64,000 nucleotides of DNA, taken from the NCBI GenBank assembly GCA_016865855.1, contig VGNX01000001.1, forward strand, positions 107,711 to 171,710, in the 5' to 3' direction. The stretch comes from Chloroflexota bacterium (lineage in GTDB: Bacteria; Chloroflexota; Dehalococcoidia; GIF9; UBA5629). The notes below the pieces were generated by a model. The model saw nothing but the letters and a program-made list of their open reading frames with translations, was not told the DNA's origin and did not search any database. The translations under genes were made by a program, and so were the position numbers. Shown here one piece after another: positions 32,453-34,915 of the stretch (its first letter is position 1; each line of letters starts with the position of its first letter).

Positions 32453-32540
32453 TGCTCAGGAAGTCAACCAAAGGCTTATTTGCAATTATATCACATCAAG
32501 TATCAGCAAACTAAAGCCAATAGAAACGGGCGATTAATAG

Positions 32541-32570
32541 AAAAACCCTCGCTTGATGGCGAGGATTTTT
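32541..32570 (-). terminator. Probable rpoBC terminator, now separated from rpoC by the IS6 element
   Basis: aaaaaCCCTCGCttgatgGCGAGGattttt hairpin with T-tract. Confidence 0.6.
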
Positions 32571-32635
32571 GGGTTCTGTTATATCTTTGTTGAGAGTTTC
32601 GAGATAGAAAATATTAAGAAAGGAGGTTAAAACTA

Positions 32636-32815
32636 ATGAAAAGAAGTAGGAGAACTAACCTAATAGAGAAGATTCTTGTGAAGACAAGCAAGGCACAGCG
32701 TAAGGTTCAGAAACAGTTCATGGACAGTATTCTGCGATGTTCAACTCCAAGACTAGAACATATAGCTAAGAATGTCAAAGTCAAGAATCGTGGTAAAAGT
32801 ATCGTTGTAGAATAA
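32636..32815 (+). CDS. Small basic protein (59 aa), IS cargo
   Basis: MKRSRRTNLIEKILVKTSKAQRKVQKQFMDSILRCSTPRLEHIAKNVKVKNRGKSIVVE; perfect AGGAGG 8 nt upstream. Confidence 0.6.
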   Translation: MKRSRRTNLIEKILVKTSKAQRKVQKQFMDSILRCSTPRLEHIAKNVKVKNRGKSIVVE

Positions 32816-32824
32816 CATTACTAC

Positions 32825-33148
32825 TTATTTAGGATAAGCTTTGATGTATATAGGAAATTTCTTATATTTCCGAACGTGGTCATTTATGGCATCTCTCTCC
32901 ATCTCTCTTGGTGTCTCAAACATTCTCGCTTCTCGGTACTTAAAGTACTTGGCTTTAGGATATTTACTGTATGTAAGGTTATCTCTTAGATGTGCCATCA
33001 AGCGGCCACGAATATTTGACCTCCTACTACCTCCTATGTACACAGGAACTTTTCTTGTATCGCCCAAAAAATATATTCCTGTCATACTGTTCGATAATGC
33101 TTTGATATTGTCGAAGGTGAACTTATACCATCTTCCTTCTACTGGCAT
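32825..33148 (-). CDS. GIY-YIG nuclease domain protein, IS cargo
   Basis: TGIYFLGDTRKVPVYIGGSRRSNIRGRLMAHLRDNL; start at MPVEGRWYKF with GGAGAG RBS. Confidence 0.8.
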   Translation of the reverse strand: MPVEGRWYKFTFDNIKALSNSMTGIYFLGDTRKVPVYIGGSRRSNIRGRLMAHLRDNLTYSKYPKAKYFKYREARMFETPREMERDAINDHVRKYKKFPIYIKAYPK

Positions 33149-33226
33149 ATCACTCTCCCATATCTTTGTTGACGCTATTTTAGCAGTCTTGTACCCTTTA
33201 GTAAATATCATATCAAGAGGTACAAG

Positions 33227-34324
33227 ATGTCCCAATACACTTATTTTAGAGGTGTCGACGTGGAAACTGGCAAGTACGCAACGATTATGACAAAACACGA
33301 ACCTGAATTATTGACTTGTAAGCACTGTAGTTCCAATGATGTAGTGAGATTCGGACACTATAAGGATACGCAGTACTATTGGTGCAATAATTGCAGGCGT
33401 AAGTTTAGCATTGCCGACACTTTGCCAAAGATGAAGACACCCATTAACCAGATAGCATCAGCACTTGGTATGTACTACGATGGTCTGTCTATTAACAAGA
33501 TACGTTACCAGCTAAAACACCTATACAATACAGATGTCTCCGACTTTGCTGTTTATAACTGGATAACAAGATTTACTAGAGATGCTATTGTGATAACCAG
33601 TCAATATAAACCAAATACAGGCTATGTCTGGCTCTGTGATGAGACTGTGATAAAAATATCAGGTAAGAAGTACTGGTTGATTAGTGTTATTGATATTAAG
33701 ACAAGATTCCTTTTGGCTTCAAGATTATCACACTATCGCAGAGTCGAGGATATACAGGAAACACTAAAGGAAGCATACAATCGCTCTGGAATGATACCGA
33801 AAGTTCTGATGACAGACCGTCTTCAAGCCTATATCTATGCTATACCTATGACGTTTGGAGATAAAGCCAAACATCTACGAGTTAAGAAACTTACAGCTAA
33901 GCCAAGTAGTAGCATAATTGAGCGTATGCAAGGAACAATTAAGGACAGAATCAAGACTATGAGAGGGCTTAAGAGCTTGAGCACAGCTAGACTGATACTT
34001 AATGGCTTTCTGATAAATTACAACTATTTTAGACCACACGAAACACTTTCCCAACAAGAGCTAACTACACCAGCACAGAAAGCTGGAATTAAATTCCCAT
34101 ACAGCAACTGGGAATCACTGATTAGGCATAGCCGAGAAGCCAAAGCACAGATATTTACCAAGCCACTAATACCAGTGTTAAAGGAGTTACCATTAACAGA
34201 AGTACAAAAGAAAAGAATTGTTGCCCGCCAAAAACAGCGTGATTTGCTTGAGAGCATAAGGAAGCAGCTAGCCAAAACTAGGCAAGATAAAATCACACCA
34301 AGTTTAAGGAGTACAAGACTATGA
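33227..34324 (+). CDS. IS6 family DDE transposase with N-terminal zinc ribbon
   Basis: CKHCSSNDVVRFGHYKDTQYYWCNNCRRKFS; YVWLCDETVIKISGKKYWLISVIDIKTRFLLA; VLMTDRLQAY; SIIERMQGTIKDRIKTMRGLKS. Confidence 0.92.
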   Translation: MSQYTYFRGVDVETGKYATIMTKHEPELLTCKHCSSNDVVRFGHYKDTQYYWCNNCRRKFSIADTLPKMKTPINQIASALGMYYDGLSINKIRYQLKHLYNTDVSDFAVYNWITRFTRDAIVITSQYKPNTGYVWLCDETVIKISGKKYWLISVIDIKTRFLLASRLSHYRRVEDIQETLKEAYNRSGMIPKVLMTDRLQAYIYAIPMTFGDKAKHLRVKKLTAKPSSSIIERMQGTIKDRIKTMRGLKSLSTARLILNGFLINYNYFRPHETLSQQELTTPAQKAGIKFPYSNWESLIRHSREAKAQIFTKPLIPVLKELPLTEVQKKRIVARQKQRDLLESIRKQLAKTRQDKITPSLRSTRL

Positions 34325-34812
34325 TAAGGAATCTTTATCCCTTCATTCGTAAGTATTCTAATGAAAGAATTTTAATGAAGCCCAAAGATTTTAAGATTTG
34401 GGTGGAACAGGAATTCCGAGTTCGATACCTAGATAGGTGCATATCTTGTCGAGCAAAAGAATTGTCGCTTGATGACAGTACAACATTTGCTCAACATTAT
34501 TCTGAATTAGCTTCAGACGTTGCGTTTCAGAGAGAGGCTTGGGAGTTATTTTTACAGGCTGTGGATAAGCTAGACAGGGATAGCCAAGAATTCCTACCAA
34601 TTCGCAGATATTATAAGCAGGACACTTTGGTTCGTCATTTGGTAAATCGCTTTGTCTCATTTATAACTGCCCCTTTCCTTTCCGTAAATCAGTTGTTTCG
34701 TATCAAAAGTCGAAATATGAAAGTACCAAGACATAGCGGAACTAATAAAAATATCAGCAAACAAGCCAATGACAACAAGAGCTATAGCGAATTAAACCCA
34801 AAATCTCATTAA
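34321..34812 (+). CDS. Hypothetical protein, translationally coupled (ATGA) to transposase
   Basis: 163-aa ORF starting on the transposase stop codon; inside the TIRs. Confidence 0.45.
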   Translation: MIRNLYPFIRKYSNERILMKPKDFKIWVEQEFRVRYLDRCISCRAKELSLDDSTTFAQHYSELASDVAFQREAWELFLQAVDKLDRDSQEFLPIRRYYKQDTLVRHLVNRFVSFITAPFLSVNQLFRIKSRNMKVPRHSGTNKNISKQANDNKSYSELNPKSH

Positions 34813-34915
34813 GGTAATTTATCATGTTCAGTAGATATAATCAACAAAGATATAACAGAACCGATTTTTGAAACCACAAGTTCTAACTTAATATAAATTA
34901 TCCCTAGCCTCTAGC

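What the first reader, a model, noticed from the sequence alone, without database searches (positions are those of the whole stretch)
32572..34862. IS6-family element carrying a GIY-YIG nuclease and small ORFs between its own inverted repeats
Seen: perfect 22-bp TIR beginning GGTTCTGTT, exact 8-bp TSD GATTTTTG, zinc-ribbon DDE transposase, divergent GIY-YIG protein (GIYFLGDTRKVPVYIGGS), a 59-aa basic ORF with AGGAGG RBS, and a 163-aa ORF coupled to the transposase. Established: IS6/IS240 elements have GGxxCTGTTGCAAA-like ends, 8-bp TSDs and are usually about 0.8 kb with only a transposase. Inference: the nuclease may bias repair or homing at donor sites, analogous in concept to TnpB/IscB nucleases in IS200/IS605 elements but with a protein-guided nuclease.
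Basis: partly seen in the sequence, partly recalled or inferred. Interest (0 to 1): 0.76.

Follow-up and report, generated by a model that had tools for sequence, protein, structure and literature searches.

The report
Cargo-carrying IS6-like element with GIY-YIG gene
This is a real, recently inserted bacterial jumping gene from the Dehalococcoidia that carries a small nuclease-like gene as cargo; its relatives form a large family in which almost every delimited copy carries different extra genes, and this kind of nuclease gene has been picked up about five separate times.

Summary
In detail: 22-bp perfect inverted repeats, an exact 8-bp target duplication (GATTTTTG), a zinc-ribbon DDE transposase, a GIY-YIG-like gene and two small ORFs. 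Two same-genus genomes have the empty site, so it is a genuine insertion. Relatives, mostly Dehalococcoidia (104 distinct transposases, 48 elements with matched ends), are 1.28-3.77 kb long; 46 carry at least one extra ORF, mostly unrelated between elements. The published IS6 survey lists one such passenger carrier, ISDsp3 of Dehalococcoides. The GIY-YIG gene is not a one-off: five family members carry it, four bounded by exact target duplications, and the transposase tree forces five separate changes. In all five a small ORF (59-86 aa) abuts it tail to tail; the 59-aa family occurs in only four of 393 class genomes, always near a GIY-YIG gene. But the nuclease gene is absent from most copies, including the two closest relatives (which hold other cargo), and another carrier has lost the YIG tyrosine. 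It is therefore best read as an optional cargo cassette, not a TnpB-like core partner. What it does (conflict cargo, booster of transposition, homing, nothing) is untested. New variant of a known kind (passenger-carrying, ISDsp3-like, IS6-related IS).

The parts
32564..32571 (.). target-site duplication, left copy GATTTTTG (in a terminator-like hairpin between ruvB and rpoC)
   Evidence: empty site
32572..32593 (+). left terminal inverted repeat, 22 bp
32636..32815 (+). 59-aa basic ORF (AGGAGG RBS), member of a small-protein family found only near GIY-YIG genes in the genomes searched; convergent with the GIY-YIG gene
32825..33148 (-). GIY-YIG-like gene, 107 aa from the ATG at 33148 (GGGAGAG RBS); GIY Tyr, YIG Tyr, Arg and Glu present, C-terminal Asn absent
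33160..33172 (+). internal copy of the inner 13 bp of the left TIR (ATATCTTTGTTGA), possible relic of an older left end
33227..34324 (+). zinc-ribbon DDE transposase, 365 aa, IS6-related
34321..34812 (+). 163-aa ORF overlapping the transposase stop (ATGA), probably translationally coupled; no homologue found; low-confidence all-helical model
34841..34862 (-). right terminal inverted repeat, 22 bp
34863..34870 (.). target-site duplication, right copy GATTTTTG

Best explanation
A passenger-carrying, IS6-related insertion sequence (ISDsp3-like) of Dehalococcoidia. Shown: 2291 bp inserted as a unit, with 8-bp target duplication, into the ruvB-rpoC spacer; genus mates have the empty site. Inferred from the family: the zinc-ribbon DDE transposase acts on the 22-bp ends. 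The GIY-YIG gene with its tail-to-tail 59-aa ORF is an optional cargo cassette sitting between the left end and the transposase, a slot that in the two nearest relatives holds unrelated genes (a membrane protein; a proteasome-like hydrolase). The cassette is probably not needed for transposition. Its most likely role (inference, weaker) is a small DNA-cutting function that benefits copies carrying it in conflicts with other DNA, like the methylase/restriction and AbiU2-type genes carried by some sister elements.
For: Ends, TSD and empty sites. 48 delimited relatives, 1282-3768 bp, 46 with an extra ORF of 60 aa or more; 38 with one of 100 aa or more (counted from the table) against 3.6 expected from shuffled arms; only 9 similar pairs among 78 passenger ORFs. 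GIY-YIG in five family members; window, L053, L173 and L207 TSD-bounded. Tree: 5 carriers need 5 changes, forced by well-supported branches. Of 9 GIY-YIG loci in 393 class genomes, 4 lie beside this transposase. 59-aa family in 4 of 393 genomes, always near a GIY-YIG gene. Other cargo: N6/N4 methylases (one fused to Mrr_cat), HEPN AbiU2.
Against: No experiment shows activity of any part. The GIY-YIG match is weak by sequence (no Pfam GIY-YIG hit for the window copy itself; sub-threshold DUF7508 and Cho/UvrC-type matches) and by fold (UvrC and Eco29kI top hits, but E above 0.1, model pLDDT 69). Only three sisters carry clear conflict-type genes, so the conflict role is a guess. Recurrent gain could also reflect a benefit to transposition.
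Confidence: 0.72

Rival explanations
1. Accessory transposition nuclease: the GIY-YIG protein raises transposition or cointegrate resolution by cutting DNA and stimulating recombination, without being essential.
For: A GIY-YIG nuclease in the Tsy transposon lowers transposition when removed but is not essential and is absent from relatives (PMC10293859). Five separate acquisitions by the same transposase family suggest a benefit tied to the element.
Against: Position and strand differ between carriers (upstream divergent, downstream convergent, downstream co-directional); the YIG tyrosine is lost in L172, and in L175 (not shown to be in an element); most family members are mobile without it.
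Confidence: 0.22
2. Homing-like drive: the nuclease (perhaps with the 59-aa basic protein as its DNA-binding half) cuts empty target sites so that the element is copied in by recombination.
For: GIY-YIG is a classic homing nuclease domain; the paired 59-aa basic ORF family was found only near GIY-YIG genes.
Against: Family members sit at unrelated target sites with different TSDs; the 107-aa protein has no attached DNA-binding domain; the partner ORFs of the other carriers belong to unrelated families.
Confidence: 0.08
3. Neutral hitch-hiker: the cassette is decaying DNA trapped between the ends with no function.
For: C-terminal Asn missing; YIG tyrosine lost in two relatives; the 13-bp internal TIR copy is compatible with accidental capture by an end shift.
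Against: ORFs intact with good ribosome sites here; five separate acquisitions; the GIY-YIG plus convergent small-ORF layout recurs across strongly diverged elements.
Confidence: 0.15

Closest known systems
ISDsp3 (Dehalococcoides sp. BAV1), IS6 family 'tIS'
   Same: Same bacterial class; longer than core IS6 (1456 bp); 8-bp TSD; carries a passenger gene; the only passenger carrier listed for IS6 (PMC7986276, PMC6807381).
   Different: ISDsp3 lacks an intact zinc finger and its passenger is an unnamed hypothetical; its sequence was not compared here because it was not available.
IS6 clades h/i (VII/VIII) of Clostridia with zinc-finger transposases
   Same: N-terminal zinc finger, DDE core, 8-bp TSD, longer element (1.23-1.76 kb).
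   Different: No passenger genes reported; different hosts; sequences not compared directly.
Tsy transposon (TnsF/tyrosine recombinase) with GIY-YIG nuclease
   Same: Optional GIY-YIG gene in one branch of a transposon lineage; removal lowers but does not abolish movement (PMC10293859).
   Different: Tyrosine recombinases, comM target, no inverted repeats detected; unrelated transposition chemistry.
IS200/IS605 elements with TnpB/IscB
   Same: An accessory nuclease gene in a small IS.
   Different: TnpB is RNA-guided and common in its family; here the nuclease gene is rare, optional and separately acquired.

Membership tests
IS6 family (core IS6/IS26) | Transposase above the NCBIfam IS6 equivalog cut-off (125 bits) | tested here: not met
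   NF033587 116.2 bits; DDE_Tnp_IS240 PF13610 is above its own cut-off (63.6 vs 27)
IS6 family (core IS6/IS26) | Length about 700-890 bp with a single transposase ORF | tested here: not met
   2291 bp, four ORFs; relatives 1282-3768 bp
IS6 family (core IS6/IS26) | 8-bp target duplication | tested here: met
   GATTTTTG on both sides; single copy in empty site L227
IS6 family (core IS6/IS26) | Ends with GG tip, cTGTt and caaa motifs | tested here: inconclusive
   GGTTCTGTT present, then ATATCTTTG instead of GCAAA; relatives vary
IS6 family (core IS6/IS26) | Copy-in cointegrate transposition | not testable with these tools
   needs a transposition assay
Passenger-carrying IS (tIS; ISDsp3-like) | Non-transposition genes between the IS's own ends | tested here: met
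   46 of 48 delimited relatives have extra ORFs; the empty site shows that the whole 2291 bp is one insertion
Passenger-carrying IS (tIS; ISDsp3-like) | Sequence relationship to ISDsp3 itself | not tested
   ISDsp3 sequence was not obtained from the collections used
GIY-YIG superfamily | GIY and YIG tyrosines, helix Arg, Glu | tested here: met
   alignment of 12 homologues; IS-borne homologues L173 and L207 show PF01541 matches just under the cut-off
GIY-YIG superfamily | C-terminal Asn of the UvrC/homing lineage | tested here: not met
   PIYIK where most homologues have PxxN; Slx1-type GIY-YIG members also lack it (PMC1564403), so this does not exclude the superfamily
GIY-YIG superfamily | GIY-YIG fold | tested here: inconclusive
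   top PDB hits are UvrC and Eco29kI GIY-YIG domains but E above 0.1
TnpB/IscB-like accessory nuclease | Nuclease gene common to the element family | tested here: not met
   5 carriers among 98 transposases on the tree, 5 separate changes
TnpB/IscB-like accessory nuclease | RNA-guided cleavage | not testable with these tools
   no guide RNA was searched for; the protein is GIY-YIG-like, not RuvC/HNH

The most novel reading that the evidence does not exclude
The GIY-YIG domain and its convergent small protein are a two-part nuclease module (catalytic half plus separate DNA-binding or inhibitor half) that IS elements repeatedly acquire because it drives their spread, a protein-based counterpart to TnpB.
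Probability: 0.1. Interest if true: 0.8.

Novelty: new variant of a known kind. Interest (0 to 1): 0.52.

Why it matters
The IS6 survey records a single passenger-carrying member. This work shows a whole lineage, mostly in Dehalococcoidia, in which almost every delimited element carries extra, mostly unrelated genes, so small DDE elements can act as gene vehicles without being composite transposons. The repeated gain of a GIY-YIG gene with a small convergent partner gives a testable case of whether a protein nuclease helps an IS spread.

Tried and rejected
Viral origin: no relatives of the transposase in viral contigs and no phage match for the GIY-YIG protein. A search by Pfam DUF7508 across the phylum mainly found proteins of about 620 aa, the size of UvrC, so it says nothing on linkage. 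General targeting of hairpins: target sites are not more structured than background. The ends of the second L172 element and of L031 were not resolved. The structure of the 163-aa ORF was too poor to use. Chance association of GIY-YIG with the transposase: about 74 transposase hits in 393 genomes cover roughly 0.03% of the DNA, so 3 of 8 non-window GIY-YIG loci beside one is far beyond chance (my own estimate).

Full report
The element is real. The strongest proof is comparative: two genomes of the same genus have the same ruvB-rpoC spacer without the insert, one of them with an unchanged single GATTTTTG. The 2.0-Mb draft genome holds one full copy, and its only two matches to the TIR (up to three mismatches) are the two ends of this element.

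The transposase has an N-terminal zinc ribbon and an IS240-type DDE domain. It is IS6-related but below the NCBIfam IS6 cut-off (116.2 vs 125 bits). Catalytic and zinc residues are invariant in an alignment of 17. Relatives lie almost wholly in Dehalococcoidia and other Chloroflexota, with a few archaeal (Thermoplasmatota-type) and single other hits.

I delimited relatives by requiring matched GG-tipped ends with target duplications: 47 by one rule (46 exact 8 bp, one 7/8) and one more, L207, from a relaxed search. Lengths are 1282-3768 bp, median 1850. Forty-six have an extra ORF of 60 aa or more; by my count of the table 38 have one of 100 aa or more, where shuffled arms give 3.6 (the script's own figure of 40 double-counts two loci that hold two elements). 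Passengers are mostly unrelated: 9 similar pairs among 78 ORFs. Twenty-six elements have an upstream ORF with a predicted membrane segment. Named cargo includes two N6/N4 DNA methylases (one with an Mrr_cat domain), HEPN AbiU2 and a proteasome-like hydrolase. A GNAT gene lies next to the L031 transposase, whose element ends lack a matching duplication. In one locus (L172) a family element sits inside the zinc ribbon of another family transposase, and the reading frame continues across the joined flanks, a second proof of the boundaries.

GIY-YIG genes of the same family occur in five members: the window, L053 (same locus as L036), L173, L207 (all TSD-bounded) and L172 (ends unresolved). Layouts differ: divergent upstream (window, L053, L207), convergent downstream (L173), co-directional downstream (L172). 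On a 98-row transposase tree the five need five changes, forced by well-supported branches. The two nearest relatives of the window transposase, L042 (58%) and L044, carry a membrane protein and a proteasome-like protein in the same slot. So the cassette was acquired, or swapped in, separately.

New here is the partner ORF. In all five carriers a 59-86-aa ORF abuts the 3' end of the GIY-YIG gene tail to tail (gap -19 to +27 bp). The window's 59-aa ORF belongs to a family present in four of 393 class genomes (a fifth hit is marginal, E=0.007), each time near a GIY-YIG gene. L053 and L173 share a different partner family (E=1.8e-14); L207 has a third. Two of the GIY-YIG loci with the 59-aa partner (L050, L175) are not shown to lie in an element; L175 is at a contig edge.

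Is the nuclease active? The window copy keeps both tyrosines, the Arg and the Glu but not the last Asn; Slx1-type GIY-YIG proteins also lack that Asn. L172 and L175 have lost the YIG tyrosine. The fold search ranks UvrC and Eco29kI GIY-YIG domains first, though weakly.

Mechanism. Shown: insertion as a unit with 8-bp duplication; an optional, recurrent cassette. Inferred: the DDE transposase drives movement; the cassette is cargo. The internal 13-bp TIR copy upstream of the GIY-YIG start (33160-33172) is unlikely by chance (46 of 20000 simulations), no comparable 12-mer repeat was found in the 35 other elements tested, and it may mark an older left end, with the cassette captured when an outer end took over; this is a guess. 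The TnpB-type donor-repair role is unlikely because published IS6 mechanisms are copy-in (PMC7986276, PMC6807381), though none has been tested for this lineage. The best precedent for a nuclease that helps but is not needed is Tsy (PMC10293859).

Literature: one IS6 passenger carrier, ISDsp3, is listed, and I found no paper joining GIY-YIG to IS6 elements in the held library; most subscription journals are not covered.

Noticed in passing
L095:752-3647 and L072:1638-5224: Two different family elements lie in tandem, separated and flanked by the same 8-bp duplication (CTTCTTGC; GGATTGGC), as if one inserted exactly at the other's target duplication. In both cases one partner belongs to the same transposase clade.
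   Followed up: partly
L172:2946-5074: A family element sits inside the zinc-ribbon codons of another family transposase with TSD CTTGAAGG; the interrupted ORF is otherwise in frame.
   Followed up: yes
window 32540-32575, L042, L044: The three members of the window's own transposase clade are all inserted in or beside hairpins (terminator-like palindromes), although the family as a whole shows no such preference.
   Followed up: partly
L075/L047 transposase ORF (512 aa): The transposase is fused to an N-terminal membrane segment, which may be the fused form of the separate membrane ORF found upstream of the transposase in 26 of 48 elements.
   Followed up: no
L174, L176, L177: Chromosomal GIY-YIG-like domains with degenerate motifs (GVV/VFIG or similar) stand beside housekeeping-type genes or within a large ORF.
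   Followed up: no
G000 contigs C13, C38 (L034, L033): Two contigs of the window's genome end inside a related transposase, suggesting collapsed multi-copy elements of this family.
   Followed up: no
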